The notes below the pieces were generated by a model that searched no databases, was not told the origin of the DNA, and was given only the letters and a program-made list of their open reading frames with translations. 64,000 bases of DNA from Paroceanicella profunda (GTDB lineage Bacteria; Pseudomonadota; Alphaproteobacteria; Rhodobacterales; Rhodobacteraceae), in NCBI RefSeq assembly GCF_005887635.2, contig NZ_CP040822.1, positions 73,472 through 137,471 on the forward strand. Reading direction: 5' to 3'. The translations under genes and the position numbers were made by a program. Shown here piece by piece: positions 35,603-64,000 of this stretch (position 1 is the first letter of the stretch; each line of letters starts with the position of its first letter).

Positions 35603-35610
35603 AGGCTTCG

Positions 35611-37775: not shown

Positions 37776-37786
37776 GGAGGAAGACC

Positions 37787-38176: not shown

Positions 38177-38199
38177 CCACAGCCCCCACGGAGCCCGCC

Positions 38200-38496
38200 A
38201 TGGACACCCAGAACCTCATTTCCCAGCTCTATTCCCGGGCGCAGACCACCATGCCGCCGGCACCGGTCGCGCCGAAGGAGGCCGTCGCCGGGCCCGATTT
38301 CGCCGAGATCGCCCGCGGCATCGTCGATGACCTGCGCCGCAACGAGGCCGTGGCCCAGGCCGGGCTCGCCGGCCGGGCCGAACCGCAGTCGGTGGTGATG
38401 GCCCTCGCTTCCACCGAGCTGGCCATCGAGACCGCCGTGACCCTGCGGGACCGGGTGGTCGAGGCCTACCAGGAAATCCTGCGCATGCCCGTCTGA
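38200..38496 (+). CDS. fliE: MS ring-rod junction protein FliE
   Basis: FliE connects the MS ring/export gate to the rod (98 aa). The C-terminal helices SVVMALASTELAIETAVTLR and RVVEAYQEILRMPV are the conserved FliE core; the N-terminus is variable. Placement directly after flgC is standard. Confidence 0.93.
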   Translation: MDTQNLISQLYSRAQTTMPPAPVAPKEAVAGPDFAEIARGIVDDLRRNEAVAQAGLAGRAEPQSVVMALASTELAIETAVTLRDRVVEAYQEILRMPV

Positions 38497-38554
38497 CCCG
38501 CCCCCCGGGGCGCTTGCCATGACGACCCGCCCGCTTCGCAGGAGATCCGTTCCG

Positions 38555-38821
38555 ATGAGCGACACCCAGATCTACGACCTTCTGCGCGATGCGCTCTGGG
38601 TGGGCTTCCTCGTCTGCCTGCCGGTGCTCGGCGTGGCGCTGGCCATCGGCCTGCTCATCGGCCTGTTCCAGGCTCTCACCTCGGTGCAGGAGATGACCCT
38701 CACCTTCGTGCCCAAGCTGGCGGCGATGATGGCCGTCTACTGGGTGACGATGGGGTTCATGAGCGGGATCCTGGTCGATTTCTTCCACGACCGGGTGCTG
38801 CCCGCCATCGTCGGGTCCTGA
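38555..38821 (+). CDS. fliQ: Flagellar export gate protein FliQ
   Basis: FliQ is a small two-helix export gate protein (88 aa). TM segments are at about 14-38 (GFLVCLPVLGVALAIGLLIG) and 50-72 (FVPKLAAMMAVYWVTMGF); LFQALTSVQEMTLTFVPK is the conserved loop. The ATG at 38555 gives the family length and has AGGAG upstream; an earlier ATG would add 12 residues. Confidence 0.95.
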   Translation: MSDTQIYDLLRDALWVGFLVCLPVLGVALAIGLLIGLFQALTSVQEMTLTFVPKLAAMMAVYWVTMGFMSGILVDFFHDRVLPAIVGS

Positions 38822-39130
38822 GCGATGGCCGGACCCCGCCCCGCGCCCGGAGTGCGGCGCCACGGCCCCTCCGCGCTTTTGCCCGCCGCGCTTTTGTCCT
38901 GCGCGCGTTCGTCTTCCGGGCGCAGGATGCGGAGGCGCTCCGCCCCGGCCGGAAGGATCGGGCTGCCCGGGGCGCGCCTTGCCTGCCGGTTCCCCGCATG
39001 CCCCCCCCGGGCGTGCCCGGCCCCCGCCGCCGGGCCGAGCGCTGGGCGGGTCTCTCCGGCCCGGTCCCGACGCGGATCCCCTCATGCCCTTCCGTCCCGC
39101 GCCGGCAGGGGGCGGGCGGCGCGGACAGGT

Positions 39131-39196
39131 TCGGGGCCGGTGGGTCCGGGGCCGGTGGGGCCGGGGCGAACGGGAACGGGACGAACGGGAACGGGG
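39131..39196. repeat. Short GC-rich tandem repeats upstream of the transglycosylase gene
   Basis: A 14-base unit CCGGGGCCGGTGGG is nearly duplicated (39131-39160), followed by two copies of a 15-base unit CGAACGGGAACGGGR (39167-39181 and 39182-39196). These end 12 bp before the transglycosylase ATG, inside a 387-bp gap after fliQ (38822-39208) with no convincing gene. If an upstream start were used, they would encode a Gly/Thr/Arg/Pro repeat. Confidence 0.75.
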
Positions 39197-39208
39197 CGCG
39201 GCGGCGCG

Positions 39209-39973
39209 ATGAAGGCGAGGCAGGGGCCCGTCTTCGCCGGCTGGCCGCGGGCCCGCGCGTTCCTGGCGCATCTGCTCTGTCTCCTGCTGCTCGGGCTGCC
39301 GGCCCTGCCCGGGCGCGCCGCCGCTCCCCCGGAGGGAGAGAGCGCCCGGGCCACGGCGGCGATCTGCGACATCGTGGCCCGCGAGGCCGCGCAGGAGAGC
39401 GGCGTGCCGCTCGACGTGCTGCGCGCCATCACCCGCACCGAGACCGGGCGCAAGCTGGAGGGGGCCTTCCTGCCCTGGCCCTGGACGATCAACATGGAGG
39501 GCAAGGGGCTCTGGTTCGACAGCCCGTCCGAGGCGCTCGCCTATGCCCGCGCCCGCCATGCCGAGGGGGCGCGCAGCTTCGACATGGGCTGTTTCCAGGT
39601 GAATTTCCGCTGGCATGGCGAGCATTTCGCCTCGCTCGACGAGATGATGGACCCGCTGGCGAATGCCCGCTACGCGGCGCGGTTTCTCTCCGAGCTCTAT
39701 GCCGAGAGCGGTGACTGGGTGACGGCGGCGAGCCACTACCATTCCCGCACCCCCGAATTCGCCAGCCGCTACGGCGCGCGGTTCGCCCGGCTGCGCGCCA
39801 GCCTGCCGCCCATGCCCGAGGGGACCGGCTTTGCCGCCCTGCCGCGCCGGGCCTCCGAGGTGCCTGCCACCGTTGCCATGGTGGCGCTGCCGTACACCCC
39901 GGGGGCAGTTTCGCTGGTTCTTCCAGCTGCGAGCGGGGGCCTGCTGACGCCGGCGCGCCCGCTGTTCGACTGA
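39209..39973 (+). CDS. SltF-like lytic transglycosylase
   Basis: This 254-aa protein has a signal peptide (LAHLLCLLLLGLPALPGRAAA) and an SLT-type domain at about 45-200. The likely catalytic Glu is in LRAITRTETGRK, supported by FDMGCFQVNFRWHG, ANARYAARFLSELY and AASHYHSRTPEFA. It would cut peptidoglycan to let the rod pass. In Rhodobacter sphaeroides SltF does this together with a single-domain FlgJ, the arrangement seen here. The start is uncertain because the frame stays open 384 bp upstream through GC-rich repeats; this ATG places the signal peptide near the N-terminus. Confidence 0.85.
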   Translation: MKARQGPVFAGWPRARAFLAHLLCLLLLGLPALPGRAAAPPEGESARATAAICDIVAREAAQESGVPLDVLRAITRTETGRKLEGAFLPWPWTINMEGKGLWFDSPSEALAYARARHAEGARSFDMGCFQVNFRWHGEHFASLDEMMDPLANARYAARFLSELYAESGDWVTAASHYHSRTPEFASRYGARFARLRASLPPMPEGTGFAALPRRASEVPATVAMVALPYTPGAVSLVLPAASGGLLTPARPLFD

Positions 39974-39986
39974 AGGTCTGAAGTCC

Positions 39987-42077
39987 ATGTCCACCCGCGC
40001 CAGCTTCAGCCCCGCCATGCTCGCCCAGCCCACGGTGATGCTGGCCCTCGCCCTGATGGCGATCATCGTGATGATGATCCTGCCGATGCCGGCCTGGGTG
40101 CTCGATGTCGGCCTCACCGCCTCCTTCGGCCTCGCCATCCTGATCTTCACCGTGACGCTGTTCATCCAGCGCCCGCTCGACTTCTCCGCCTTCCCCACCA
40201 TCCTGCTCGCCTCGCTGATGCTGCGGCTCTCGCTCAACGTGAGCTCGACCAAGCTCATCATCGGCGAGGGGCACAACGGGCCCCAGGCCGCGGGCGGGGT
40301 GATCGAGGGCTTCGCCATGTTCATCATGGGCGGCTCGGTGGGGCTGGGCCTCGTGGTGTTCGGCGTGCTGCTGATCGTGAACTTCATCGTGATCACCAAG
40401 GGTGCGGGCCGCATGGCCGAGGTGGGCGCGCGCTTCGCGCTCGACGGCATGCCGGGCAAGCAGCTCGCCATCGACAGCGACATGGCCGCCGGCGCCATCA
40501 CCCACGAGCAGGCCCGCGAGCGGCGCAAGACCGAGCAGGAGGAGACCACCTTCTTCGGCTCGCTCGACGGCGCGTCGAAATTCGTGAAGGGCGACGCGGT
40601 GGCGGGGCTGCTCATCACCCTGCTGAACCTGCTCGTGGGCCTCTCCATGGGCATCCTCGTGCACGGCATGCCGGCGGGCGAGGCCTTCGAGACCTATGCC
40701 ATCCTCACCGTGGGCGACGGGCTCGTCACCCAGATCCCGGCGGTGATCATCTCCATCGCCGCCGCCCTGCTGCTCTCGAAGGGCGGCGCGCTGGGAACGG
40801 CGGACAAGGCGCTCTTCGGCCAGCTCGGCCGCTACCCGCTGGCGCTCGCCACCGTGGCCGGGCTGATGGGGCTGTTCGGGCTGATGCCGGGCCTGCCGGT
40901 GCTGCCCTTCGTCACCGGCGCCGCCATCCTGGGCGGCATCGCCTGGATCTCCGCCGGCCGGCAGGAGCGGGCGAAGACCGCCGAGCGGGTGGAGACCGAG
41001 GCCCCCGCCCCCGCGCCCGCGCGCCGGCTGGGCGACATGCTCGACCTCGACGAGATCCACCTCGAGTTCGCCCCCGACCTGGTCGCCACCGTGATGGACG
41101 AGGCCACCGGGCTCGACGGGCGCATCCTCAACATGCGCAACCACATCGCCCAGACCTGGGGGCTGATCATCCCGGAGATCCGCCTCACCGACAACGCGCT
41201 CCTGCCGCGCGGCACCTATGCCATCCGCATCCAGGGGGTGGAGATGGCGCGCGCCCGGCTCAAGACCGGCTTCGTGCTGGTGCTGCTCAACGAGGCGATG
41301 GGCGAGGCGCCGCCGGGCGAGGACGTGGCCGAGCCGGTCTACGGCGCGCCCGCGCGCTGGATCGCGGAGGCCGACCAGGAGGAGGCGGCGCTCAACGGGC
41401 TCTCGGTGGTCACCCCGGTGGAGGTGGTGGCCACGCACCTGATGGAGGTGCTCAAGCTCAACTTCGGCCGGCTGTTCAGCCGCCGCACCCTGCGCAAGCT
41501 GCTCGAGGAGTTCACCCGCGTCTCCGACACCGCCCGGGCGGAGGCGAACCGGCGCATCCTCGACGAGTTCATCCCCGACCGGGTGCCGGTGGACCTGCTG
41601 CAGCAGGTGCTGCGGCTGCTGCTGGAGGAGCGGGTGTCGATCCGCAACCTGCCGCTGATCCTGGAGGCGATCGCCGAGGCCAAGACCGTGGTCAACCATA
41701 CCGAGGCGATCTGCGAGCATGTGCGCCACCGGCTGGGCTTCCAGCTGGTCGCCGAGCTGATGGAGCCGGACGGGGCGCTGCCGCTGATCCAGCTCGCGCC
41801 CGAATGGGAGGAGACCTTCCTCGCCCACCAGATCGACGGGGCGGACAGCGGCGTGGACGTCGCGCTGCCGCCCACGGACTTCAACCGGCTGGCGCGGTCG
41901 GTGGCCGAGAAGCTGGCCAAGGCCGGCGCGGACGGGCGCTACCCGGCGATCGCCACCTCCACCCGGCGGCGGCGCTTCCTGCGCACGGTCCTGTCGGCCA
42001 AGGGGATCCGGAACCCGGTGCTCTCCTTCGAGGAGATCGGCACCGAGGTGAAGCCGGCCCTGCTCGGAGTGGCCTGA
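39987..42077 (+). CDS. flhA: Flagellar export gate protein FlhA
   Basis: FlhA is the large export gate protein with a cytosolic nonameric ring (696 aa). About eight TM helices fill residues 15-320; FHIPEP-family signatures include LLASLMLRLSLNVSSTKLI and TKGAGRMAEVGARFALDGMP. The linker (about 330-350) is Ala/Pro-rich and the cytosolic domain carries EIRLTDNALLPRGTYAI and RRFLRTVLSAKGIRNPVLSF at the end. Follows the transglycosylase by 13 bp. Confidence 0.97.
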   Translation: MSTRASFSPAMLAQPTVMLALALMAIIVMMILPMPAWVLDVGLTASFGLAILIFTVTLFIQRPLDFSAFPTILLASLMLRLSLNVSSTKLIIGEGHNGPQAAGGVIEGFAMFIMGGSVGLGLVVFGVLLIVNFIVITKGAGRMAEVGARFALDGMPGKQLAIDSDMAAGAITHEQARERRKTEQEETTFFGSLDGASKFVKGDAVAGLLITLLNLLVGLSMGILVHGMPAGEAFETYAILTVGDGLVTQIPAVIISIAAALLLSKGGALGTADKALFGQLGRYPLALATVAGLMGLFGLMPGLPVLPFVTGAAILGGIAWISAGRQERAKTAERVETEAPAPAPARRLGDMLDLDEIHLEFAPDLVATVMDEATGLDGRILNMRNHIAQTWGLIIPEIRLTDNALLPRGTYAIRIQGVEMARARLKTGFVLVLLNEAMGEAPPGEDVAEPVYGAPARWIAEADQEEAALNGLSVVTPVEVVATHLMEVLKLNFGRLFSRRTLRKLLEEFTRVSDTARAEANRRILDEFIPDRVPVDLLQQVLRLLLEERVSIRNLPLILEAIAEAKTVVNHTEAICEHVRHRLGFQLVAELMEPDGALPLIQLAPEWEETFLAHQIDGADSGVDVALPPTDFNRLARSVAEKLAKAGADGRYPAIATSTRRRRFLRTVLSAKGIRNPVLSFEEIGTEVKPALLGVA

Positions 42078-42138
42078 TGCGCGCGCCCTGCCTGCCGGCG
42101 CCGCCCTCCCGGCCGGCCGCCGCACCCCCGGCGGAGCC

Positions 42139-42173
42139 TTCTCCTCGGGGGGCATCGAGCCCCCGTCGGAGAA
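42139..42173 (+). repeat. Dispersed palindromic element, copy 1
   Basis: Outer arms TTCTCC/GGAGAA surround the core GGGGGGCATCGAGCCCCC and are followed by CGGCCCG. It lies in the 148-bp gap between flhA and fliR, where no gene is seen. Two further copies occur at 51344-51379 and, inverted, 52089-52123. Confidence 0.8.
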
Positions 42174-42225
42174 CGGCCCGCAGCGCGGGCCGCAGCGCCC
42201 CGCCCCCGGCCGGGACAGCGGGACG

Positions 42226-43056
42226 ATGACCGGGCTGGACGGGCTCATCGGCCTCTCCGCCGCACTGGAGGCGCTGGGCATCGCCGGCGGCAGCGGCCCG
42301 GCGATGGTGTTCACCTTCTTCGCCGTGTTCATGCGGGTGGGGGCGGTGGTCTCGCTGCTGCCGGGGATCGGCGAGCAGACCATGTCGATGCGCACCCGGC
42401 TGTGCGTGGCGCTGGCGCTCAGTGCCGCGCTCTGGCCGATGCTGGCGGAGCACGCGCACCTGCCGGGCGCGGACTGGGCCCCGGCTGCGCCGCAGCTCTT
42501 CCTCGTGCTGCTGGCCGAGACCGTGGCCGGGCTGGTGCTGGGGATCGCACTGCGGCTGATGCTCGTCGTGCTGCAGCTCGCGGGTTCGATCGCCGCCCAG
42601 TCCACCGCGATTTCCCAGATCGCCGGCGCCGGCGTGACCCCGGACCCGATGCCGGCGATGGGCAACATCCTGGTGATGGCCGGAATCGCCCTCGCCCTCA
42701 CCCTCGGGCTGCACGTGAAGGCGGCGGTCATGATCGCCTGGTCCTACGAGATGCTGCCCTTCGGCCGCTTCCCAGACGGGGCGGACATGGCCAGCTGGGG
42801 CACGGCGAGCGTGTCGCGCGGCTTCGCCCTCGCCCTGGCGCTGGCCGGGCCCTTCGTGCTGCTGTCCTTCCTCTACAACCTCACGCTCGGCGCCATCAAC
42901 CGGGCGATGCCGCAGCTCATGGTGGCCTTCGTGGGGGCACCCTTCATCACCGGGGCGGGGCTGGTGCTGCTGATGCTCGCCGGCCCGGTGATGCTGCGCA
43001 TCTGGGTGGGGGCGCTCGACGACGTGCTGGCCGATCCGCTGGCGGTGCCCCGATGA
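42226..43056 (+). CDS. fliR: Flagellar export gate protein FliR
   Basis: FliR is an export gate membrane protein (276 aa) with about six hydrophobic helices. Typical pieces: VFTFFAVFMRVGAVVSLLPG, LCVALALSAALWP, IAAQSTAISQIAG and LLSFLYNLTLGAINRAMPQL. It overlaps flhB by 4 bp. Confidence 0.95.
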   Translation: MTGLDGLIGLSAALEALGIAGGSGPAMVFTFFAVFMRVGAVVSLLPGIGEQTMSMRTRLCVALALSAALWPMLAEHAHLPGADWAPAAPQLFLVLLAETVAGLVLGIALRLMLVVLQLAGSIAAQSTAISQIAGAGVTPDPMPAMGNILVMAGIALALTLGLHVKAAVMIAWSYEMLPFGRFPDGADMASWGTASVSRGFALALALAGPFVLLSFLYNLTLGAINRAMPQLMVAFVGAPFITGAGLVLLMLAGPVMLRIWVGALDDVLADPLAVPR

Positions 43057-53627: not shown

Positions 53628-54565
53628 GGCAATGTCCTTCATTGGAAAGCGCGATGGGAAAATGGCTCGTCTGCCCGCCCCCGCGCCGGCCACCCCCGGG
53701 CGGCCGCCCCGGCGGGCGGGGTCATCACGGCCCGGGAACGGCGGGGAAAATTCCCGTGCGCCCGCAGGCGCGCCCGCGGACCGCAGCGCCGAGTTTCGGC
53801 GCAAAGCCCGGTCACATCAAGCACCTTTCCCGCACCCGCCGGCGGCGCGGCGCCGGTCCCGGCTCCGCGCGCTCCGGCGCCCGGGCCCCGTCATCCCGGC
53901 CCTGCCGCGGCTTTCCCGCCATTCCCCCTGCCGCCCGCATCCCCCCAGGAGGCACGGCCGCCTCTCGCGCCCGCCGCTGCACCGCCTGTCCGGTCCCGGC
54001 TCCGCGCCCTACCCCATGCGCCCGGGCCTCCGGTCCGCGCCCCTCCCCGCTGTCCCTCCCGGCAAGGCCGGCCTTCCGGGGCCGGGCCGGCGTGCCACCC
54101 GCGGCCCCGGCCGGCCCGGCCCAGCACTGGTGTCCCCGCGCCGCCTCCGGCCCGGCACGCGCCTCGCCCTGCCACCCCGCGCCCGCCCTGCCGCCGCGGC
54201 ACGTCCCGCCCTTCCGCCGCGCGGCACGCGCGGCCCGGCCCAAAGCGCAGGAGACGCGCCCCGCGAGGGGCGGGTCGAGGGAGCACGGGAGCCCCCCTCC
54301 GGCCAATGGCCTTGCGGCCTGGGGGCTCCCGTGCTGTGGCCACCTGTCGGTGTCCGCCGCTTTGGGCCGGGCCGGGCGCTGCGCGCCCGGCACCAGTGTC
54401 GCCCCCCGCGGCTTGCCAAGCCGCCGGGAGCGTCGCAGGATCGGCGGCATCCGCCCGGGACCGGCATGGCCCCCGCTGTCCCCGCCATCCGCCTCCAGCC
54501 TCGGGAGACCCGATCCAGATGCCCAAGCTCCGCCTGCCCCCGGCCCTCCGCCCCGGAGATGCCAC
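53628..54565. other. Long GC-rich gap with nested inverted repeats
   Basis: These 938 bp show frames open on both strands but no recognisable protein, and the coding look is an effect of GC content. A nested inverted repeat lies at 54231-54374 (separate entry). The ribosome site and start of the HdeD-like gene end the gap. Confidence 0.6.
54231..54374. repeat. Nested inverted repeat
   Basis: Outer arms: CGGCCCGGCCCAAAGCG (54231-54247) is perfectly complemented by 54358-54374. Inner arms: AGCACGGGAGCCCCC (54282-54296) is perfectly complemented by 54321-54335. The loop holds GGCCAATGGCC. In RNA or as a cruciform this would form a two-tier stem about 140 bases long. Confidence 0.8.
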
Positions 54566-55159
54566 GTGAGCGTCTCCGTCCCCGCCGCCGCCGCCATCCT
54601 GCGCGAGGCGATGCGCGAGAGCGTCCGCCGCCATTCCTTCTGGTACCTAGTCCAGGGCGGGATGATGACCCTCGCGGGCCTCTGCGCCCTGCTGTTCCCG
54701 GTGTTCTCCTCGCTCGCCATCACCCTGGTGCTGGGCTGGCTGCTGGTGATCGGCGGGGTGATGCGCGGCATCGGCCTCATCGCCAGCCGCCACCTGCCGT
54801 ATTTCTGGCTGCAGGCGATCTCGGTGCTGCTGTCGCTGCTCGTGGGCCTGTTCATCCTGCGCAACACCGGCGAGGGGCTGCTGATGCTCACCCTGCTGCT
54901 GATCATCCTGTTCCTGATCGGCGGCATCTCCCGGGTGATCTTCGCCCTCTCCATCCGCCCCTTCCCGAACTGGGGCTGGGTGCTGCTCAGCGGATCGGCC
55001 TCGGTGGTGCTGGCCTTCTTCCTCTATGCCAGCCTGCCGGTCACCGCGCTGTGGCTGCTGGGCGTGTGCCTGGGGATCGAACTGGTCGGCGAAGGCGTCT
55101 CGCTGAGCTGGCTGGCCTGGAAGGTGCGCACCGCAAGGCGCCCGGTCACCACGCCCTGA
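54566..55159 (+). CDS. HdeD/DUF308-family membrane protein (GTG start)
   Basis: This 197-aa protein has about six hydrophobic helices (GGMMTLAGLCALLFPVFSSL, LVLGWLLVIGGVMRGIGLIA, FWLQAISVLLSLLVGLFIL, LTLLLIILFLIGGISRVIF, LLSGSASVVLAFFLY and a last one). The repeated GGxxR-type turns fit the HdeD family, linked to acid stress in Escherichia coli but of unclear general function. The GTG is set by CGGAG eight bases upstream. Confidence 0.85.
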   Translation: MSVSVPAAAAILREAMRESVRRHSFWYLVQGGMMTLAGLCALLFPVFSSLAITLVLGWLLVIGGVMRGIGLIASRHLPYFWLQAISVLLSLLVGLFILRNTGEGLLMLTLLLIILFLIGGISRVIFALSIRPFPNWGWVLLSGSASVVLAFFLYASLPVTALWLLGVCLGIELVGEGVSLSWLAWKVRTARRPVTTP

Positions 55160-55173
55160 CCCGGGCTTCGCCC

Positions 55174-55188
55174 TTAACTGGCTGTTAA
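55174..55188 (+). promoter_or_regulatory. Perfect CtrA box
   Basis: TTAA, CTGGCTG, TTAA matches the CtrA recognition sequence at all eight fixed positions, 49-63 bp upstream of the ATG at 55237. It is the only perfect match noticed in the window. Confidence 0.7.
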
Positions 55189-55236
55189 TCCTGACGCGCG
55201 ACTCTCGGGTCTTCCTTCCGAACGGGAGACCCGCCG

Positions 55237-56310
55237 ATGCCCGACCAGCCGCATTTTCCCATCGCCCTGCTGCCGCTCGGCCCGGCCGACCTGCTGCTGG
55301 CCCTGGCCACCGTGCTCGCAGCGCTGTTCTGCGGCCTGCTCGCCTGGCGCCTCGCGCGGCAGGAGAAGGCGGGTGCCGCCGCCCTGGCCGGGCTGAGGGT
55401 CGAACTCGCCGGGCTGCAGGAGCAGATCGCCGCCGCGATCGCGCTGCAGGAGACCAGCGCTGCCGCCGAGCGCGACAGCACCCGCCAGTTCGTCGAGGAG
55501 ACGGTGCGCGACGCCGCGACCATTACCGCGACCGAAGTCATCAGCCATGCGCGCGAGGAGATCGACACCCGCAGCACCGCCCTCTCGGAAGAGATCCGCG
55601 ACGCGATGTCCGAGGCGCTCGCCCGGCACGGTGCGGAGCTGCGCGGCGAAATCACCCCCACGGTCGAGGAACTGCTCGCCGAGCTGCTGCCCCCGGCAAT
55701 CGAGGCGGCTTTCCCGCCCGCCTTCGAAGCCGCGTTCCCGGATGCCTTCCCGCCCGCCTTCGCCGAGGCTTTCACGGAAGCCTTCGGCGCGGCCTTCGAC
55801 GCCCGCTTCCCCCCGGCCTTCGCCGATGCCTTCGAACCGGCGCTGGACCGGGAGCGGCTGGCGGAGGAGATGGTCGGACTGCTCTCCGGCCCGCTGGCCG
55901 AAACCTTCGCCGAGGCCTTCGCGACCCGGATGGAGGAGACCGTCTCCGCCGCCGATGCCGCGGCACGCGAGCGGATCGAGGCCGAAATTCCGGGCCTGCG
56001 CAGCTCCCTTACCGAGGCGCTGACCCCGGTTCTGGAAGAGCGCATCGCCATCCAGGCCGGCGAATTCCTCACCGAACGGCTGCAGGGCGAGATCGGCGCA
56101 CGGCTCGCGCCGGCGGTCGAAACGGCAATGGAACGGGCCGGAAAGCTCCTGGCCGCCGACTTGCACGACATGGCCGAGGCGGAACTGGCCAGGGCCGCGG
56201 CCGACCGGCCTCCCGCCTCCGACCCCTCGCCTGCGGATCCCGCCGGCCCCGCCGCGCTGCCGCACCGCAGCGGAGGCCTTATCTCCGTGCATTCCGGACG
56301 CCGCCGCTGA
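55237..56310 (+). CDS. Membrane-anchored coiled-coil protein under a CtrA box
   Basis: I do not recognise this 357-aa protein. One TM lies at about 17-38 (LLLALATVLAALFCGLLAWR), followed by coiled-coil helices (about 40-145), then a Phe-periodic amphipathic segment at about 158-204 in which F recurs mostly every third to fourth residue (AAFPPAFEAAFPDAF, AEAFTEAFGAAFDARF), and more helical sequence to a Pro-rich tail. The topology suggests a short periplasmic N-terminus and a long cytosolic rod. The rhythm resembles the large repeat protein at 46-49 kb. The CtrA box suggests a role in motility, polarity or division. Confidence 0.75.
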   Translation: MPDQPHFPIALLPLGPADLLLALATVLAALFCGLLAWRLARQEKAGAAALAGLRVELAGLQEQIAAAIALQETSAAAERDSTRQFVEETVRDAATITATEVISHAREEIDTRSTALSEEIRDAMSEALARHGAELRGEITPTVEELLAELLPPAIEAAFPPAFEAAFPDAFPPAFAEAFTEAFGAAFDARFPPAFADAFEPALDRERLAEEMVGLLSGPLAETFAEAFATRMEETVSAADAAARERIEAEIPGLRSSLTEALTPVLEERIAIQAGEFLTERLQGEIGARLAPAVETAMERAGKLLAADLHDMAEAELARAAADRPPASDPSPADPAGPAALPHRSGGLISVHSGRRR

Positions 56311-56992
56311 CCCGGTTCCGGTCCGCCTGAGGGATGCACGAGATCCGGACACTGCACCGAACCATACGGAAATGAGGCCACCCCGGCCATCATCGCGAAG
56401 AAACCCCGATTGCCCGAGGCGTGAACGGTCCGATATCGGAGCCATCCGCCGCCGCCTGGAACGGCAGCCGCGGAAGGGGCCCGGAAATCTGCCCGGGGTC
56501 ATGAGCGACGGTCCGATACCGTGGGCCCGGATGGCTTACCCGCAAAGACCGCTACGCCGTGCCATGTCTGCCCGCCTGATCCGGAAAGTCCCGAGCGAAG
56601 GGTCCCGGAGGCCCCGCGCTTCGCCGGCGCATTCAGGCCAACGGCGCCATGTTGCACTGCGAAGGGGGATGGGCCACGGCCGCCCCGGCGCCGGCCCCGA
56701 GGCGCGCGGAGCGGACATCATCCGGCATGAGCGCGACCTTCGCAATCACCGTGCCATCCCCGGCTGCGCCTGACGCCGGCGCAGCCCTGCCGCCCGTTCC
56801 TCGCAACCGCACAATGCAGGCAGCGCCGTGCACTCCCGGAGCAGCACACCCGCCAGCCCCGCACCGGAAATGGAAGCACCGTCACGCGAAGCCGAACCCC
56901 CGGCATCCGGGCGCGGCAGATCGCCCCGAAGTCGCCTTCCCCCGACCGCGAGGCCCCATCGGCACAGCCCCCCCGGGCCGGGACCCGTTGGC

Positions 56993-57014
56993 GCAGACCG
57001 GAATTCCGGTCTGC
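56993..57014. repeat. Perfect 22-bp palindrome
   Basis: The half-site GCAGACCGGAA is followed directly by its exact reverse complement, centred on GAATTC, about 440 bp upstream of the glycosyltransferase start. Length and symmetry suit a dimeric DNA-binding protein or a terminator. Confidence 0.7.
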
Positions 57015-57085
57015 CCGGATCATCCTGGTGCTTGCCGAACAGTGCAAAAAAATGGAAAGTCAGTACCGAAACGCGGCCCGTGCCG

Positions 57086-57099
57086 GATGTCATGACATC
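57086..57099. repeat. Perfect 14-bp palindrome
   Basis: GATGTCA is followed by TGACATC, flanked by CCG and CCGG. It lies about 350 bp upstream of the glycosyltransferase and is a possible operator. Confidence 0.55.
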
Positions 57100-57451
57100 T
57101 CCGGCATGAGACCCCGAGCGCGGGCCTCGCCCCGACGGCGCACCCGGCCCCGATTCCGGCTGCAGAAGCCGGCGCCATGAGGGCGGGCGGAGAGGCCTGC
57201 CACACATCTCCGGCAACATCCCTCAACCTCAGCTAGAAAATTATGTTGCACTGCAAGGAGGGCGAGTAAATAGCCTTGCAAGCAGAATTGGAACATGGTC
57301 CAACAGGCTGTCCCGGATCTCGGAGCGACAGCCCGAGGTTCGGCAACGACATATAGGACGCCAATGAGCAAGCACGCGAACGACAGACACGAAGGCTGAC
57401 CGCTCAGTTCGCGCATCGAATACGTCACAACATCAAGTTCCTGGGTAAAGC

Positions 57452-59641
57452 ATGATCAAAAAAATTGGATTTATCATTCCAAGCATTGGGGTCGGTGGCG
57501 CTGAACGGGTGGTTGTCAGTCTTGCCAATGCTCTTTCTACGTATTTTGAGTGTGTAATTTTTGTTCAGCCAGGGTCTCAGAGACATTATCAGATCGATGT
57601 GGACGTTCTGGAAATAGACTTCACGAAAGAGGGAATACTGAACGCGGTCAAGGAGCATAAGATTGACCTCCTGTCGGATCACTTCCACTGGGAAGCGGAC
57701 CACGTCAAAGTTATCGCCGAGGTTGCCGACGAGGGCGTGAAAGTCGTCCTGACCGAGCACAATTCGTACTATTATCCCCTGTTCCAGTTCGCGCGTGACC
57801 GGAAGGCCGGGTATGACAAGTGGTTCAATGACCGCTACGATTTCTACAAGAAATTCACCGGCGTCATCCTGCTGAACGAAGATACTCACAAGAGCTTCCG
57901 GCAGCATCTGGACAATATCTACACCATCCCCAACCCGGTTCCCTATGATCCCTCGGGTGTTGCGGATTACAATTCGAAGCGTGTTCTGTCTGCTTCACAC
58001 TTCTTCAAGAAAGCCAAGCGGATCGACCTGCTCTACGCCATGCAGGCGAAATTGCAGGACATGGTTCCCGAATCTGTTCTCACAATTCTCGGGAATTACA
58101 GCTGGACTCAGGATCAGTACTATCGCCGGGCCACGGGGTGTCGGCCGGACGCGGTGCGCAGCCCCGGCCGGACCACGCGCGTGGAAGACTATTACAACAA
58201 GGCGTCCGTATTCGTCATGACGTCGGAGATCGAAGGCCAGCCGATGGTCCTGCTGGAGGCCGCGATGCATGCCCTCCCCCAGGTGTGCTTCGATATCCCC
58301 GGCCTTCGCGACCAGATCGTGGATGGCGTGACCGGGCGGCTCATTCCGTACGGCGATGTCGATGCTCTCACGGCCTGTGTCTCCGAACTGCTCGAAAATC
58401 CGGACAGGATGCGGGAAATGGGGCTCGCCGCGCGCAAGTTCGTTCAGGAGCAGTTCTCCGAGGAGCGCGTTGTCGATATCTGGATCGACCTGATTGCCGA
58501 AATCGACAAGACGGGTCGCATAACGGCGCCGGAGTATGAGCAGACCGAAGAAGAAAAGGAAAGCGACCTGAAGTGGAAGGACTACTGGAAGGGTGCGGCA
58601 AACAACGCGGCCAGCCATGTGGACCCGAAGATCAGCTTTCTTGTTCCCGTATACGGCACCGAGGCCGTTCTGGGCCGATGCCTTCGCAGTATTCAGGACC
58701 AGACTCTCGAAGAATTCGAATGTATCGTGGTGGATGACGCCTCTCCCGGAGATGTGGAAGCCGTGATGCGCGAAGCCATCGGCGATGACGCCAGGTTCCG
58801 GATCATTCATCACGCCCAGAACCGCGGTCTTTATCAGGCGCGCTCCACTGCGGCAGACGATGCGTGCGGCCTGTTCTTCGCGAATATTGACAGCGATGAC
58901 TATATCCACCCGTCATTCGCGGAAATCATGTTCGACAAGGCCATTCTGACAGACAGCGAAATCGTCGAATGCCAGGCGATCGAGCTTCACGCCGATGGAC
59001 GGCCCATCCGGTTCAACGATATTCAGCAGGTTGACCCGATCGATGGTGCCGAGGCGAACAGGGCCTTCCTCAACAATACTTTTAGAAACGTGGTCTGGAA
59101 CAAGATATACGCCCGGGACCTCTGGCGGCGGGTTCCGGAGCACAATTCCATCGACGTGGGCCTGTCCATCACGGAAGATCTGCTCCGGAACAGCTTGCTG
59201 TTCCCGGCCTGCCACAGATATACGGCCGTCCAGGACTGCCTGTACTATTATTGTCGCCGGCCGACCTCGGTCGTCACGGGTGGGGATATCATCCGGCTGG
59301 ACAAGAAGCTGAAGGATATCGAGTACTCCTATCGGAAGGCGAAGGCCCAGTATGTTTCGGAGGACTCCGAACAGTTCTGGAAAAAGCTGGAGCACCGAAG
59401 AATTGAGGATATCTCCTGGTATGTCTCGGAGTACCTGAAGCGTACCGAACTCAGTGCGGTGTGGTCCGAAATCTGGGAGAAGGATGTCGACCCGTCCCTG
59501 TCCCTGATCATTTCGCTTGTAGCCAACAACGCCAAGTTGGATGTTGAGCTGCAGCATCGCTGGAACGCCTGGCGCTGGGAGCTGAACAGAGCTACCCGCC
59601 TGGAAAACAAATTGACGGAAGCCCGGAAGACTCTCTCTTAA
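57452..59641 (+). CDS. Two-domain glycosyltransferase (GT4-like plus GT2-like)
   Basis: This 729-aa protein fuses two glycosyltransferases. Residues 1-360 are GT-B/GT4-like: IGFIIPSIGVGGAERVVVSL at the start and the E-x7-E motif EGQPMVLLE at about 261-269. From about 392 a GT-A/GT2 domain begins with ISFLVPVYGTEAVLGRCLRS, VVDDASPG at about 427 and the metal-binding NIDSDDY at about 479. The last 130 residues are helical. It probably adds two successive sugars to a surface glycan in the cytosol. Composition is visibly less GC-rich than the flagellar genes, suggesting acquisition. Confidence 0.9.
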   Translation: MIKKIGFIIPSIGVGGAERVVVSLANALSTYFECVIFVQPGSQRHYQIDVDVLEIDFTKEGILNAVKEHKIDLLSDHFHWEADHVKVIAEVADEGVKVVLTEHNSYYYPLFQFARDRKAGYDKWFNDRYDFYKKFTGVILLNEDTHKSFRQHLDNIYTIPNPVPYDPSGVADYNSKRVLSASHFFKKAKRIDLLYAMQAKLQDMVPESVLTILGNYSWTQDQYYRRATGCRPDAVRSPGRTTRVEDYYNKASVFVMTSEIEGQPMVLLEAAMHALPQVCFDIPGLRDQIVDGVTGRLIPYGDVDALTACVSELLENPDRMREMGLAARKFVQEQFSEERVVDIWIDLIAEIDKTGRITAPEYEQTEEEKESDLKWKDYWKGAANNAASHVDPKISFLVPVYGTEAVLGRCLRSIQDQTLEEFECIVVDDASPGDVEAVMREAIGDDARFRIIHHAQNRGLYQARSTAADDACGLFFANIDSDDYIHPSFAEIMFDKAILTDSEIVECQAIELHADGRPIRFNDIQQVDPIDGAEANRAFLNNTFRNVVWNKIYARDLWRRVPEHNSIDVGLSITEDLLRNSLLFPACHRYTAVQDCLYYYCRRPTSVVTGGDIIRLDKKLKDIEYSYRKAKAQYVSEDSEQFWKKLEHRRIEDISWYVSEYLKRTELSAVWSEIWEKDVDPSLSLIISLVANNAKLDVELQHRWNAWRWELNRATRLENKLTEARKTLS

Positions 59642-59659
59642 GTATGGGAAACCTTAGCT

Positions 59660-60346
59660 ATGAGTAAAACTACACAGCTCCTTTCGGTTCTTGGCGAAAT
59701 TCGCGGACGCCTTGACGAATTAGAGGAGATGGTTCGTTTTCCGGACAAGTATGTGGTTGGGATGCCGCAGGGATTTGAGGATGATGACGTCGAAACCCGT
59801 ACGCCTCAGGCATGGCTGGACATCAACCAGCACGGATTGACCGAGGCCACGCGCGCGCATCCGTTCGAGATGGTGTCGGGCCTCATGCAGTTCGGCTGCC
59901 CGGATCCGAACGCGGTCTGCACGTTCTCGACCTTCGAGCTGTCCAATCTCCACCAGAACGCGTCCGAAACGCGATACGGACTGCGCGCGAATCCGACCGG
60001 CGAGAAGAACTCCTGGTTCACCTACGAACTGGCCCTCGACGAGCCGAACCTGCAGGACTACGAGTGGCTGGAGTGGATCATCAAGGTGTCCTCGGACACG
60101 CCGGTGGACATCTTCTTCCAGATCATCTGTGACGGGCTTTCCGAAGACACTCGGATCGATGTCGGGCGGCGGAAGGTCAATGAATTTTCCAGCTTCCAGC
60201 ACATACTGCTCCCCCGGCAGCAGGTGGAGGACCATAATGCGCTGGCTTCCGAGAGGATAAGGCTAATAATTGGTACGGACGGATCACCCGTGCCGCTGAA
60301 CGTGTACGCGCTGGGTGTTTACGCAAAACGAACTAATTCAAACTAA
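59660..60346 (+). CDS. Unknown beta-rich protein in the glycan operon
   Basis: I do not recognise this 228-aa protein. A short helical N-terminus (LLSVLGEIRGRLDELEEMV) is followed by beta-strand-rich sequence with many aromatic residues (VCTFSTFELSNL, SWFTYELALDEPNL, EWLEWIIKVSSDTPVDIFFQ, RIRLIIGTD), suggesting a jelly-roll-like or carbohydrate-binding fold. No catalytic motif stands out. It lies 18 bp after the glycosyltransferase and 13 bp before a sulfotransferase, so it likely serves the same glycan. Confidence 0.7.
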   Translation: MSKTTQLLSVLGEIRGRLDELEEMVRFPDKYVVGMPQGFEDDDVETRTPQAWLDINQHGLTEATRAHPFEMVSGLMQFGCPDPNAVCTFSTFELSNLHQNASETRYGLRANPTGEKNSWFTYELALDEPNLQDYEWLEWIIKVSSDTPVDIFFQIICDGLSEDTRIDVGRRKVNEFSSFQHILLPRQQVEDHNALASERIRLIIGTDGSPVPLNVYALGVYAKRTNSN

Positions 60347-60359
60347 GGCGGCTCAAAAC

Positions 60360-61133
60360 ATGACGAAGAGCTTCGGTAAACCGGCACTTCTATTCGCTGC
60401 TACACAGCGTAGCGGTTCAACAATGGTCGTGGATGACTTCCAGAATATCACGGGAAGGTCGCGCACTGAGAGTGAAGCATTCTACAGGCAGGTCATCGCG
60501 GCTGAACGGTCGTCTGAGGACTGGGATGTCACGGTCGAGAAGGTAAAGGCATTTCGCGACAAAGAAGTGATTTTCTTCGACAAGATCATGTTCCATCAGA
60601 TGACTGTCCTGTCCGAGATGATCGATCCGGAAAGGCACACGCCTGCGTGTCTGCCGTTTTTCGAGTACTTCCGTGATGCGACCTGGGTCTACATCCGCCG
60701 CGCGAATGCCTTCGAGCAGGTGGTGTCGAAATATATCGCCGAGGCGCTGAACGTCTGGGACAAGGCCGATGCCAAGTCCGACGATTTCAACTCGAAGTTC
60801 GAGTTCAACATCGAGCTCGCGAAGGTGCATCTGCGCAGCCTCCTCAAGGAGGACGAGCAGTGGCAGGTGTTCTTCCGCCGTCACAAGATCTCCCCCATCG
60901 AGATCTATTATGAAGACGCGGTTTCGAACTTCCCGAACTACCTGGCTCCGGTTCTGGAGAAGATCGGCGTGTCGGCCAATCTCGAGCAGACCGGCGAGCG
61001 CAGGATGCGGAAGCTGGGGAACAGCCGGAACGAAAACCTGGCCAACGTTCTCATGCACATGATGATGCGTGAAAACATCCAGTCCGGTTTCGAGTTCAAG
61101 CAGTTCATCAGGAACGCAAAAGCCAACCAGTAA
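60360..61133 (+). CDS. Stf0-like sulfotransferase
   Basis: This 257-aa protein begins with a PAPS-binding loop ATQRSGST (14-21) after a hydrophobic strand, and has TWVYIRRANAFEQVVSKYIA as the second PAPS contact and PIEIYYEDAVSNFPNYL in the C-terminal half. This layout fits the Stf0 family, known from mycobacterial trehalose sulfation. ATG chosen for AAGGCGG upstream. It probably sulfates the glycan made by the neighbouring glycosyltransferase (inference). Confidence 0.85.
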   Translation: MTKSFGKPALLFAATQRSGSTMVVDDFQNITGRSRTESEAFYRQVIAAERSSEDWDVTVEKVKAFRDKEVIFFDKIMFHQMTVLSEMIDPERHTPACLPFFEYFRDATWVYIRRANAFEQVVSKYIAEALNVWDKADAKSDDFNSKFEFNIELAKVHLRSLLKEDEQWQVFFRRHKISPIEIYYEDAVSNFPNYLAPVLEKIGVSANLEQTGERRMRKLGNSRNENLANVLMHMMMRENIQSGFEFKQFIRNAKANQ

Positions 61134-61299
61134 GCCTGGTGCAGGCAAACGCATGAGGGAGATGGCCTCCGGCTGCCCTGGCTGTCTCAGACGCAGGGGA
61201 GCCGAGTGGGCATTCCAATGGTCTTCAGGCTTGCGACCGCCTGGTCGTGAGAAGCGATCAGGTTCCTTACGGGCCGCAGAGGAATAGGAAGGGCCGAGC

Positions 61300-61911
61300 A
61301 TGTTGGCGTTTTTTGAACCAAAAATTGTTGTTCTTGCCGTTCCAAAGACCGGTACTTCCGCGCTGAACAGGTATCTGCGCAAGATCGCGGATATTGCTTA
61401 TATCGGAGTAGAGGGCGAAAAGGCGGGCAAGCACACGTCTGTCTCTGACTTCAGGGGAAAGGTCGAACCCGATCTTCTCAAGCAGGGGCATGGCCCCTTC
61501 GAATGCGTGGCGGCCTTCCGGGAGCCCGTGAGCTGGCTGAACAGCTGGTACCGGTTTCGCCGGCGTGACTCCCTGGACGGAAAGCCGCAATCGACGAAGG
61601 ATCTGACTTTCGATGAGTTCGTGCAGGCTTTCTGTTTGCCAGACCGGAAAAAGCCGCTATGTGCAAATCTGAAGCCGCAAAGCTGGTTCGTGTGCGACAA
61701 GGCAGGGGCGATCGCTGTCGATCACCTTTTCAAGTATGAGCTGGAAAACCGTGAGATCAGCAAGTTCCTTGCCGACAGGCTGAACGTGGAGATCAAGCTG
61801 GATCAGGTGAACGTGTCTCCTGTTCGGACCGGGTTCGACCTGAGCGAGAAGACACTGAGGTTGTACCGGCGCGCCTTCGCATCGGATTTCGAGATCTACG
61901 ATTCTCTGTAA
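61300..61911 (+). CDS. Second sulfotransferase, distinct subfamily
   Basis: This 203-aa protein has the PAPS loop VLAVPKTGTSALNRYL (about 11-26) and a 3'-phosphate-type segment CVAAFREPVSWLNSWYRFRR (about 69-88). It is smaller than and clearly different from the Stf0-like enzyme upstream. It is separated from it by 166 bp, where no gene was seen. A second sulfation position or a different substrate is possible. Confidence 0.82.
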   Translation: MLAFFEPKIVVLAVPKTGTSALNRYLRKIADIAYIGVEGEKAGKHTSVSDFRGKVEPDLLKQGHGPFECVAAFREPVSWLNSWYRFRRRDSLDGKPQSTKDLTFDEFVQAFCLPDRKKPLCANLKPQSWFVCDKAGAIAVDHLFKYELENREISKFLADRLNVEIKLDQVNVSPVRTGFDLSEKTLRLYRRAFASDFEIYDSL

Positions 61912-62155
61912 GACGCAGTTTTATAAGCCCTTTTGACAAGGCACGGCTGAAACTGGGGAGGGTCGGCTGTTAGAATGTCCGTCCGGAGCGCCGAGTATGC
62001 TTCGATGTGACGTACGGGGAAATGCCGCGCCTCAGCGGTGAAAAAATCAGAGATATGACAGAGACCCGCTCTCCTGGGGAGAGCCGTGGTGTTGCGGCCT
62101 GTGGTTCCGGAGGGAGCATCTGGTCTGGTGTAAATTCAACCGTGGTTGAGGGTAA

Positions 62156-63229
62156 ATGATGAACCTCACTTCGCAGATCATTTATCAGGGTGAGGGCTAC
62201 CTGGTCGAAGCTCTCGGGACGCTCGAGCATGACGTGACGATCGTCGGCTTCGCGTCCAGAGGGGCATCGGCACGCTACAACCCGGTGACACCTGCAGATT
62301 TTGACCGGCGCTTCCTGAAGGCGTCGCTCCTGAAGTGGAACCTTCCGGTCAATTTCGTCAATTTCACGAGCAACAGGAACTGCTGGTTCATGCTGCCGGA
62401 GATCGTGGAGGCATGCTCCGCTCTCCGCAAGCGCCTCGGGGGGCAACGGCTCATCACCTACGGAAGCTCCATGGGTGGGTTTGCAGCGATCAATTGCTCC
62501 ACCTTCCTCGATGCCGATTACTTCCTGGCGCTGTCGCCCCTGTACTCGATCTTCGATCCGTTCATGAAATCCATCAGGGACACCCGGTTTCGCGAGGAAC
62601 GTGAAGCGCTGAATGACGCCTTCGATGGTATATCGAAGGGCTGGCATGCCGGGCGGACCGGGCTGGTTGCCTATGATGATCGGCACGAGCGGGATACGCG
62701 GCATGCGCAGGAGATCCTGAAGCAGACGTCCGGCCATGAGCTGAAGGTTCCGTTCGCCGGACATCCCGTCGGCCCCTCGCTGAACCGGGCATATTCCCTG
62801 AAGAAGATCCTTGTTCAGAGTATATCCGGGCCCATCGATGTCGACGAGGTTCAGAAGGTTGTCCATTCCAACCTGGAAAATTCGGCAGGGGCCCTCGCTG
62901 CCGATGGTGACGGGTTGCCGGAGTTTCTGAACCTTGTGCGACAGGGGCAGCGCTCGGTGGATCCGAGTGCCTGGGTGTCCGCCAGCCAGACGCTGGTTGA
63001 TCTGGCGAAGAAGGAAAGCATAGACGAGGACGTGCTCGGTGCATTGTGCAGCTCGTTTCCGGATAACGAGTTCTGGGCCGGTGCCCCCAGCAAGCTTGTC
63101 CAGTGTGCCTGGGGATTTTGCCGGGCGCTCGAGGAGCTGGGTGATCTGTCCCGCGCGCGCGAATTCGCGGAGGAACGGATGCCGGAGCCCCAGCGGAGCA
63201 GGTTCCTGGCACGGGCGTCCACTGACTGA
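62156..63229 (+). CDS. Alpha/beta-hydrolase-fold protein of the glycan island
   Basis: This 357-aa protein has a nucleophile elbow YGSSMGGFAA with S105, preceded by a hydrophobic strand (LITYGSS). VTIVGFASRGASARYNPV near the N-terminus may form the oxyanion region; His residues around 230-240 (FAGHPVGPSLNRAYS) could complete a triad. The last 100 residues are helical (REFAEERMPEPQRSR). Similar proteins occur beside surface-glycan genes, perhaps as esterases or deacylases. Two ATG codons overlap at the start; GAGG precedes them. Confidence 0.75.
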   Translation: MMNLTSQIIYQGEGYLVEALGTLEHDVTIVGFASRGASARYNPVTPADFDRRFLKASLLKWNLPVNFVNFTSNRNCWFMLPEIVEACSALRKRLGGQRLITYGSSMGGFAAINCSTFLDADYFLALSPLYSIFDPFMKSIRDTRFREEREALNDAFDGISKGWHAGRTGLVAYDDRHERDTRHAQEILKQTSGHELKVPFAGHPVGPSLNRAYSLKKILVQSISGPIDVDEVQKVVHSNLENSAGALAADGDGLPEFLNLVRQGQRSVDPSAWVSASQTLVDLAKKESIDEDVLGALCSSFPDNEFWAGAPSKLVQCAWGFCRALEELGDLSRAREFAEERMPEPQRSRFLARASTD

Positions 63230-63250
63230 CTTGCCTCCGTGGGACCTGTC

Positions 63251-63289
63251 GCTCCCGTTGCCGGCACCTTGACGGCCGGTAACAGGAGC
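63251..63289 (+). terminator. Imperfect hairpin after the hydrolase gene
   Basis: GCTCC pairs with GGAGC, GTT with AAC and CCGG with CCGG, interrupted by two symmetric mismatches, about 20 bp after the stop. A probable end of the glycan operon. Confidence 0.5.
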
Positions 63290-63364
63290 GCCTGAAGCGG
63301 TCCGGGAAAGCGCTCGCTCCGGCCGGGGCTTTCCTGCATTGATGACAGTCGCCGCTGACCACTG

Positions 63365-63409
63365 AATATATGAGAAAGGTGCGCTGCGCGACCTTTACGA
63401 ATATATATT
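63365..63409. repeat. AT-rich inverted repeat upstream of the protelomerase-like gene
   Basis: AATATAT (63365-63371) pairs with ATATATT (63403-63409), and AAAGGT (63375-63380) pairs with ACCTTT (63391-63396); the centre is GC-rich (GCGCTGCGCG). This is the most AT-rich stretch noticed in the window. It may be the promoter, an operator or a recombination target. Confidence 0.6.
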
Positions 63410-63452
63410 TTGCATATATCCTTTCCGTCATCCAGGTTGCGGGAGACGGCAG

Positions 63453-64000
63453 ATGACCGGCACTGAGCAGACACCCCCGAAGCGCCGCCGCAGCTATGCT
63501 CTCAGCGATGCGCTTGAGGCATTCGTGGGGGAGGTGGTTCCTCTTGTCGTTCCCGAGATGTCGAGCCACTGGAAACGGCGCATCCTCGTGCTCTGGGACC
63601 AGGAGCAGCAGGCTTTCTCCGACAAGACGCCCAGCACGCAGAAGCTCTATACCTCGAAGTTCCGCAAGGCGCTGCGCGAAGGGCTGGAACGAGCGGAGGC
63701 GGACCCGGATCGACGCAAGCAGGTCGCGGCCAAGCTTATGGAGATCATCCGGCAGGACCCGGAGGCCGTCGAGGGGATCAATGCCCAATACCGGCGCCGG
63801 GTGGCGGAGCGGCACAACAATATCTCGATCATCCCGCACTGGAAGGGGCTGGTGGAAGAGTTTCGCCTGCTCCTGAACCATTCAGATGCACGGGTGAAGG
63901 CGATCGCGCTCATGGCGCTCACCGGGCGACGCTTTATCGAGATCGTCCGCGTCGGGTCTCTATCTCCTTTGATTGAGATTGTTGGTCATGGCCGGATCAC
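63453..64000 (+). CDS. Protelomerase (telomere resolvase)-like protein, C-terminus beyond the window
   Basis: About 182 N-terminal codons are visible. After a basic start (PPKRRRSYALSDALEAFV) come helical segments (LYTSKFRKALREGLERAEAD; INAQYRRRVAERHNNISIIP) and ALMALTGRRFIEIVRVG. The TGRR-x-x-E motif after a hydrophobic helix is how the catalytic domain of telomere resolvases and their tyrosine-recombinase relatives begins, with the second Arg catalytic. Known family members cut palindromes and reseal them as hairpin ends. The ATG follows GGGAGACGG. The active-site Tyr and the rest lie outside, so a divergent phage-type integrase cannot be excluded. Confidence 0.55.
   Translation, partial: MTGTEQTPPKRRRSYALSDALEAFVGEVVPLVVPEMSSHWKRRILVLWDQEQQAFSDKTPSTQKLYTSKFRKALREGLERAEADPDRRKQVAAKLMEIIRQDPEAVEGINAQYRRRVAERHNNISIIPHWKGLVEEFRLLLNHSDARVKAIALMALTGRRFIEIVRVGSLSPLIEIVGHGRI

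What the first reader, a model, noticed from the sequence alone, without database searches (positions are those of the whole stretch)
63453..64000. Telomere-resolvase-like gene at the right edge
The visible N-terminal part carries a TGRR-x-x-E motif behind a hydrophobic helix and an N-terminal basic/helical region like protelomerases (TelA/TelK/ResT type). These enzymes maintain linear replicons with hairpin ends and are rare. A copy next to a motility locus and a glycan island would suggest a linear chromosome/plasmid or a linear prophage.
Basis: partly seen in the sequence, partly recalled or inferred. Interest (0 to 1): 0.8.

Follow-up and report, generated by a model that had tools for sequence, protein, structure and literature searches.

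The report
Linearised flagellar plasmid with telomere resolvase
The gene at the edge is a real telomere resolvase, an enzyme that caps linear bacterial DNA with hairpin ends; it sits at the very end of a flagellum-and-sugar-coat plasmid that looks linear here, although a sister species appears to carry the same plasmid as a ring without the gene.

Summary
Window 63453-64000 encodes the N-terminal part of a TelA-type telomere resolvase. The window ends where its contig (C5, 137,471 bp) ends. The rest of the gene, with most of the catalytic domain and the tyrosine, lies on the opposite strand at the other end of the same contig (C5:448-2). The last 49 bases of C5 are the exact reverse complement of C5:417-465, so the ends are inverted, not overlapping. 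The five other plasmid contigs have long direct end overlaps (circles), and the chromosome's two ends abut in a relative.

In the one same-genus genome searched, which has no telA, the C5 right arm runs into the C5 left arm within one contig, as in a ring. In the window's strain the ring is open at that place, between two lower-GC terminal arms; the right arm carries telA.

Best reading: a circular ParAB-type flagellar/exopolysaccharide plasmid became a hairpin-ended linear plasmid by acquiring telA and telomeres; the terminal inverted repeat starts inside telA. The resolvase is shown by sequence, linearity is strongly inferred, and hairpins were not seen. Hairpin linear plasmids are a known kind; new are the lineage, the ring-to-line comparison and the repeat edge inside telA.

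The parts
63453..64000 (+). N-terminal part of the telomere-resolvase gene (telA-like), open at the contig end; holds the first catalytic Arg (second R of TGRR). The remainder is at C5:448-2 (-), outside the window, at the other end of the same contig.
   Evidence: partner piece; both pieces adjacent and collinear on P0009
63952..64000 (.). First 49 bases of the inferred terminal inverted repeat (TIR): exact reverse complement of C5:417-465 at the other end of the contig. The left copy runs on for at least 465 bases (C5:1-465). The repeat edge lies inside telA.
56191..64000 (.). Right terminal arm: G+C 0.588 against 0.72 in the core. Its stretch 56197-63450 gave no match in the sister genome. 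Glycosyltransferase, sulfotransferase and telA genes. The left arm is C5:1-2940 (G+C 0.644), outside the window.
   Evidence: genes
54400..56190 (+). Last stretch of the core shared with the sister (83% identity). In sister contig G001:C51 it is followed, after 2135 bases, by the counterpart of C5:2941-5935 (left arm of the core).
57452..59641 (+). Glycosyltransferase (GT1 and GT2 domains) in the right arm
60315..61133 (+). Stf0-type sulfotransferase in the right arm
61300..61911 (+). Sulfotransferase-family gene in the right arm
934..43056 (.). Flagellar/chemotaxis island of the core: eight C5 proteins were tested, among them FlgE-type, CheA, FliF, MotA, FlhA and FliR in this stretch, and FlgI just left of the window

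Best explanation
C5 is a linear plasmid with covalently closed hairpin ends, maintained by a TelA-type telomere resolvase encoded at its right end. Mechanism by analogy with TelA: replication proceeds from the internal replication/partition module, runs round each hairpin and leaves inverted telomere junctions; the resolvase cuts each palindromic junction with its tyrosine, refolds the strands and seals two hairpins. The two ends share a terminal inverted repeat that starts inside telA: the right end carries the whole gene (the assembly stops 49 bases into the repeat), the left end carries a 5'-truncated copy (C5:448-2). The plasmid descends from a ring, still found in the sister species, opened between two conserved genes by gain of two lower-G+C arms, one with telA. 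SHOWN by sequence: the resolvase halves, the 49-bp inverted end match, no direct end overlap, the ring-like adjacency in the sister, no telA in the sister. INFERRED: intact telA in the cell, the TIR beyond 49 bp at the right end, the hairpins, the enzyme's activity, the direction of change from ring to line.
For: Resolvase: PF16684 in both pieces, solved TelA matches 1.2e-6 and 1.2e-23; pieces adjacent and collinear on one full-length relative, N piece on P0009 4-172 and C piece on 164-309. Only these two PF16684 places exist in the genome. Ends: 49-bp exact inverted match; C2, C3, C4, C6 and C7, five of five other plasmid contigs, have direct end overlaps of 6.8 to 12.3 kb at 99.5-99.8%, C5 has none; C1 ends abut at G001:C27:70772/70773. 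Sister: G001:C51 = C5:127871-129661, 2135 bp, then C5:2941-37801 on one strand, no N at the junction; G001:C37 = C5:38476-127314; ParA 95% identical; no PF16684. The sister's junction holds a tyrosine-recombinase gene with no match in G000. Precedent: Rhizobiaceae linear plasmids whose contig joins the same end of one short TIR contig at both ends, TIR about 1.1 kb (PMC13293297); Phaeobacter pS26_106 with telA and a 148-bp inverted end repeat.
Against: No raw reads: no fold-back reads, read depth or gel. The right end shows only 49 bp of the repeat. No hairpin palindrome is visible at either end. GC skew is not decisive. The sister is a 110-contig draft; its contig breaks near C5 38 kb and 127.6 kb leave open that it is linear there, though it has no telA. 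Absence of the arms from the rest of the sister genome rests on searches that scored 40 of 1374 and 40 of 978 candidates. The TelA residues Tyr201 and Arg205, needed for hairpin refolding, align to Val and Asn in a gapped stretch. topA, lnt and Dot/Icm genes typical of other telA plasmids are not on C5.
Confidence: 0.85

Rival explanations
1. C5 is a ring in the cell, and the assembly broke at a large inverted repeat in which telA and a second 3' copy of it face each other; the resolvase is decayed or works elsewhere.
For: The arms would join at a palindrome, which assemblers handle badly. Agrobacterium biovar 1 keeps its resolvase gene on a circular chromosome (PMC13293297 section 21). The sister plasmid looks circular.
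Against: Five of five other plasmid contigs closed with 6.8-12.3 kb direct overlaps in the same assembly; the visible inverted identity is 49 bp, which long reads would cross. A ring with a telomere junction and an active resolvase would be cut. No other replicon of this genome looks linear, so the enzyme would have no target.
Confidence: 0.09
2. Chimeric contig end: C5:1-465 was wrongly attached to the left end, and telA is intact inside an ordinary linear or circular replicon.
For: The left telA piece has no 5' part; contig ends are the least reliable part of an assembly.
Against: A fold-back artefact would copy the right end whole, telA N part included, not join the 3' part to unrelated sequence. 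TIRs that take in subtelomeric DNA are the rule in Rhizobiaceae linear plasmids.
Confidence: 0.05
3. A phage-type or Xer-type tyrosine recombinase, not a telomere resolvase.
For: Telomere resolvases are related to tyrosine recombinases (established knowledge); the sister has a tyrosine recombinase at the opening site.
Against: Pfam scans of the two pieces list PF16684 and no integrase family (E up to 10, up to 1). The solved matches over the C piece are TelA, ResT and TelK only.
Confidence: 0.01

Closest known systems
TelA, telomere resolvase of Agrobacterium (linear chromid)
   Same: Catalytic domain (PF16684), nucleophile Tyr405 and Arg255 positions, start of the N-terminal region (residue roles from passages of PMC3558466).
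   Different: Far below the TelA equivalog cut-off (99.2 and 27.8 against 800 bits). Here the gene lies on the linear replicon itself, cut by its TIR edge. Tyr201 and Arg205 are not recovered in the alignment.
Linear hairpin plasmids pLin of Rhizobiaceae (PMC13293297)
   Same: Protelomerase on the plasmid, TIR at the ends, one contig with the same repeat at both ends.
   Different: Those carry topA, lnt and dot/icm genes and are mostly hypothetical genes; C5 has none of these by tblastn and instead a ParAB module, flagellar and glycan genes.
Phaeobacter piscinae pS26_106 and a near-identical Aliiroseovarius TelA; Paracoccus sp. TOH p2
   Same: TelA-family gene on a plasmid or plasmid-like contig of the Rhodobacterales, 41-43% identical to the C piece; pS26_106 is deposited as linear with a 148-bp inverted end repeat.
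   Different: telA is 21 kb from the end in pS26_106 and sits with lnt, ssb or topA; in C5 it is the last gene.
Linear chromid of Agrobacterium arisen by a single protelomerase acquisition (Ramirez-Bahena 2014; title seen in a reference list)
   Same: A ring made linear by gaining a resolvase.
   Different: Old and shared by a clade there; here seen in one species of a genus, on a plasmid.
N15 TelN/telRL and E. coli chromosomes linearised with it (recalled; only listings seen)
   Same: Adding a resolvase and its site opens a ring.
   Different: Engineered, phage enzyme.

Membership tests
Telomere resolvases (protelomerases, PF16684) | ResT/TelK catalytic domain | tested here: met
   Profile 7-42 in the N piece and 51-181 in the C piece; both over the cut-off
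Telomere resolvases (protelomerases, PF16684) | Tyrosine nucleophile with Arg, Lys, Lys/Arg and His set | tested here: met
   TGRR aligned to TelA Arg255; invariant K23, K102, R105, H133, Y144 of the C piece in A2, four sequences; Y aligned to TelA Tyr405. The set is spread over two contig ends.
Telomere resolvases (protelomerases, PF16684) | TelA residues Tyr201 and Arg205 for strand refolding | tested here: inconclusive
   Aligned residues are Val and Asn in a gapped stretch; roles
Telomere resolvases (protelomerases, PF16684) | Makes hairpins from a palindromic telomere junction | not testable with these tools
   Needs the enzyme and the end sequence
TelA of Agrobacterium (NCBIfam equivalog NF052462) | Score over the curated cut-off of 800 bits | tested here: not met
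   99.2 and 27.8 bits for the two pieces; even summed far below. Not filed as an orthologue of that TelA.
Hairpin-ended linear plasmids | Protelomerase gene on the replicon | tested here: met
   Two pieces on C5, no other PF16684 place in the genome
Hairpin-ended linear plasmids | Terminal inverted repeat | tested here: met
   49 bp exact, inverted, at both ends; at least 465 bp present at the left end. Full length unknown.
Hairpin-ended linear plasmids | No direct end overlap, not circular | tested here: met
   20 kb against 20 kb, only the 49-bp inverted match
Hairpin-ended linear plasmids | Reads folding back at covalently closed ends | not testable with these tools
   No reads held
pLin-type telA plasmids (topA, lnt, dot/icm) | topA, lnt and Dot/Icm genes on the replicon | tested here: not met
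   11 proteins by tblastn against C5, C6, C7: on C5 only telA matched
Phage integrase family (PF00589) | Match to the integrase profile | tested here: not met
   Not among the hits

The most novel reading that the evidence does not exclude
A natural ring-to-line conversion caught within one genus: a plasmid carrying flagellar and exopolysaccharide genes, circular and without telA in the sister species, was opened in place of a resident tyrosine-recombinase gene by gain of a telomere resolvase and telomeres, and the ends were then made alike by end exchange that copied the 3' half of telA onto the other end.
Probability: 0.6. Interest if true: 0.75.

Novelty: new variant of a known kind. Interest (0 to 1): 0.66.

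Why it matters
Resolvase-made linear plasmids were reported in Alphaproteobacteria only in 2025, in Rhizobiaceae (PMC13293297). If C5 is linear, a motility and surface-glycan plasmid of another alphaproteobacterial group is too, and the pair of species gives a before-and-after comparison: what a plasmid needs to become linear, where it opens, how TIRs form, and what linearity changes for replication and gene order. It is also a warning that linear plasmids hide in finished-looking assemblies as contigs whose gene halves sit on both ends.

Tried and rejected
Insertion sequence at the edge: first guess for the 49-bp second copy; rejected because it is inverted telA sequence, present at only two places. 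Circular closure of C5: tested by end comparison, no direct overlap. Linear chromosome: C1 also lacks a long overlap, but its ends abut in a sister contig. Telomere palindrome: the 25 best palindromes of C5 do not lie at its ends; near telA and at the repeat edge only short or imperfect ones turn up, so no target site is claimed. GC skew: one minimum near 36.7 kb beside the ParAB module, not decisive. Close relatives of this TelA: best 51% (Neomegalonema); in the tree the C piece stands alone on an unresolved fork (22 rows of 23 gathered; the G706 row gave no match and dropped out; P0005, P0006, P0008, L031, L033 and L035 were not put in). Protein search with the Neomegalonema relative: 8 proteins, with only the 7994 candidates sharing most words scored. 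I took the gene at window 55237-56307 for rmuC while working; no Pfam or NCBIfam family supports that, so it is not named. No structure prediction was run. Species of the window not determined.

Full report
What was seen. The ORF at window 63453-63998 is the N-terminal part of a telomere resolvase. The window is C5:73472-137471 of a 5.47-Mb genome in 7 contigs, and its right edge is the end of contig C5. Searching the genome with the window's last kilobase gave a second place: the last 49 bases occur exactly, on the other strand, at C5:417-465 (the reverse search gives the same pair only). The reading frame beyond them, C5:448-2 (-), is the rest of the catalytic domain: PF16684 profile positions 51-181 of 181, E 5e-29, while the window piece covers 7-42. 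PF16684 has no other place in this genome.

One gene in two halves. On the full-length relative P0009 the window piece aligns to residues 4-172 (40% identity) and the left-end piece to 164-309 (43%); the overlap is just the shared 49 bases. Against solved structures the left piece matches TelA (1.2e-23), ResT (1.9e-4) and TelK (7.1e-4) and nothing else up to E 10. The second Arg of TGRR aligns to TelA Arg255 and the Tyr of SYM to Tyr405; I took these roles from passages of PMC3558466 and counted positions, allowing for the 20-residue tag offset. Lys23, Lys102, Arg105, His133 and Tyr144 of the left piece are invariant in four sequences. Relatives run on past the contig end by some 50 to 60 residues, so the last part of the gene is in neither end.

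Topology. I compared the ends of the contigs (first 20 kb against the last 12-20 kb). C2, C3, C4, C6 and C7 overlap directly by 6762, 8387, 9323, 7943 and 12271 aligned bases at 99.5-99.8%, as untrimmed circles do (for C7 only the last 12,235 bases were compared). C1 has no long overlap, but its two ends map to adjoining bases of one sister contig, G001:C27:70772/70773, so it is a trimmed circle. C5 alone has no direct overlap and an inverted end match. This is the picture that Kuzmanovic et al. [quoted passage not shown]). The assembler stopped 49 bases into the repeat on the right and at least 465 bases into it on the left. The repeat edge falls inside telA, so the left copy lacks the 5' part.

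The sister. G001 is the one same-genus genome among those searched and has no PF16684 match. It has the C5 plasmid: ParA 95% identical, C37 matching C5:38476-127314 in reverse order at mostly 82-94%, and C51 matching C5:127871-129661, then 2135 bases of its own, then C5:2941-37801, all on one strand. There are no N at that junction; the one N run is at 35128-35152. So the two ends of C5's core are neighbours in the sister, as in a ring. C5 itself bridges the two places where the sister's contigs break (near C5 38 kb and 127.6 kb); the sister could be open there, but it lacks a resolvase. The junction of the sister holds a tyrosine-recombinase gene (PF00589, E 1.5e-7) that has no match in G000.

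The arms. C5 right of 129661 (window 56191 on) has G+C 0.588 and C5:1-2940 has 0.644, against 0.72 between them. The tested parts, window 56197-63450 and C5:466-2940, gave no match in G001 (the tool scored 40 of 1374 and 40 of 978 candidates, so a weak match elsewhere could have been missed). They hold glycosyltransferase, sulfotransferase and pyruvyl-transferase genes. The core holds a module matching plasmids annotated ParA, replication initiator protein A and ParB (ParA and ParB domains) and flagellar genes: of eight proteins tested, seven are FliF, FlhA, FliR, FlgI, FlgE-type, MotA and CheA, and one a Wzz-like chain-length protein.

How common. PF16684 was found in 2 of 195 relatives (G000 itself and G023), 3 of 394 genomes of the family (G000, G023, G706) and 1 of 390 of the order (G000 itself). 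The control set rang in one of 14 genomes, Synechococcus elongatus. By tblastn the left piece matched 10 plasmid records and 3 phage records, the window piece 3 plasmid records; a genome-contig scan gave 13 loci. Related plasmids show linear features: Phaeobacter pS26_106 has a 148-bp inverted end repeat at 95%; Agrobacterium deltaense pEL101-131, deposited as a circle, contains two palindromes of about 38 and 34 kb, as when an assembler reads round hairpins, with telA on both sides of one centre. Unlike those plasmids C5 has no topA, lnt, ssb or Dot/Icm match (11 proteins against C5, C6 and C7; lnt-like matches on C6 only).

Most likely working. The enzyme resolves replicated telomere junctions into hairpins, as TelA does. 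The route from ring to line is inference: gain of a telA-telomere segment at or next to the tyrosine-recombinase locus, immediate opening by the enzyme, then exchange between ends that copied the right end, telA 3' part included, onto the left. That telA is absent from all but 3 of 394 family genomes favours gain in this lineage over loss in the sister.

What is not shown. Hairpins, reads, depth, the telomere palindrome, enzyme activity, the full TIR, the species name. A Rhodobacterales host is inferred from the plasmid module and the related records. Residues matching TelA Tyr201 and Arg205 were not recovered. The protein is not an orthologue of Agrobacterium TelA by NCBIfam's cut-off.

In print. 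Full-text searches for telomere resolvase with linear plasmid and Rhodobacter (3 papers, listing only), linear plasmid with Roseobacter and telomer (none), protelomerase with Alphaproteobacteria (10), linear plasmid with Roseobacter (17) and protelomerase with rhodobacter (2) gave no listed title about resolvase-made linear plasmids in this group; most listed papers were not opened, and subscription journals are largely missing from the library. Two papers mention a linear plasmid in Roseobacter litoralis without end type in the passages seen (PMC3176799, PMC4103551).

Noticed in passing
NZ_CP143887.1 (loci L052, L053): Agrobacterium deltaense pEL101-131, deposited as a 131-kb circle, holds two long palindromes (about 38 and 34 kb), so it is probably a hairpin linear plasmid read round both ends; the two centres share about 585 bp at 97%.
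   Followed up: partly
NZ_CP098363.1 (loci L018, L019): Paracoccus sp. TOH p2, deposited as circular, carries two different telA genes about 130 kb apart, each in an lnt-ssb-topoisomerase-SPOR-telA-nrdH run.
   Followed up: no
L023:9290-10711: The closest TelA relative (Neomegalonema, 51% over the C piece) lies on a 1.5-Mb scaffold just before an ORF that looks like KDO-8-phosphate synthase (recognised by eye), so perhaps a chromosomal resolvase.
   Followed up: no
G001:C51:2756-3973 (L089): Tyrosine-recombinase gene at the place where C5 is open; one copy in the sister, no match in the window's genome.
   Followed up: partly
window 63365-63419: Upstream of telA: AAAGGT/ACCTTT with 10 bases between, flanked by ATATAT runs; could be an operator, too short to call.
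   Followed up: no
C5:459-480 (L002): The TIR edge coincides with an imperfect AT-centred palindrome (11-base arms, 82% complementary); unexplained.
   Followed up: no
window about 47960-48560: Tandem 156-base repeats (96-98% alike) seen in the end comparison.
   Followed up: no
PMC13293297 against PMC3176799 and PMC4103551: The 2025 paper calls its linear plasmids the first in Alphaproteobacteria, while earlier papers mention a linear plasmid in Roseobacter litoralis.
   Followed up: partly
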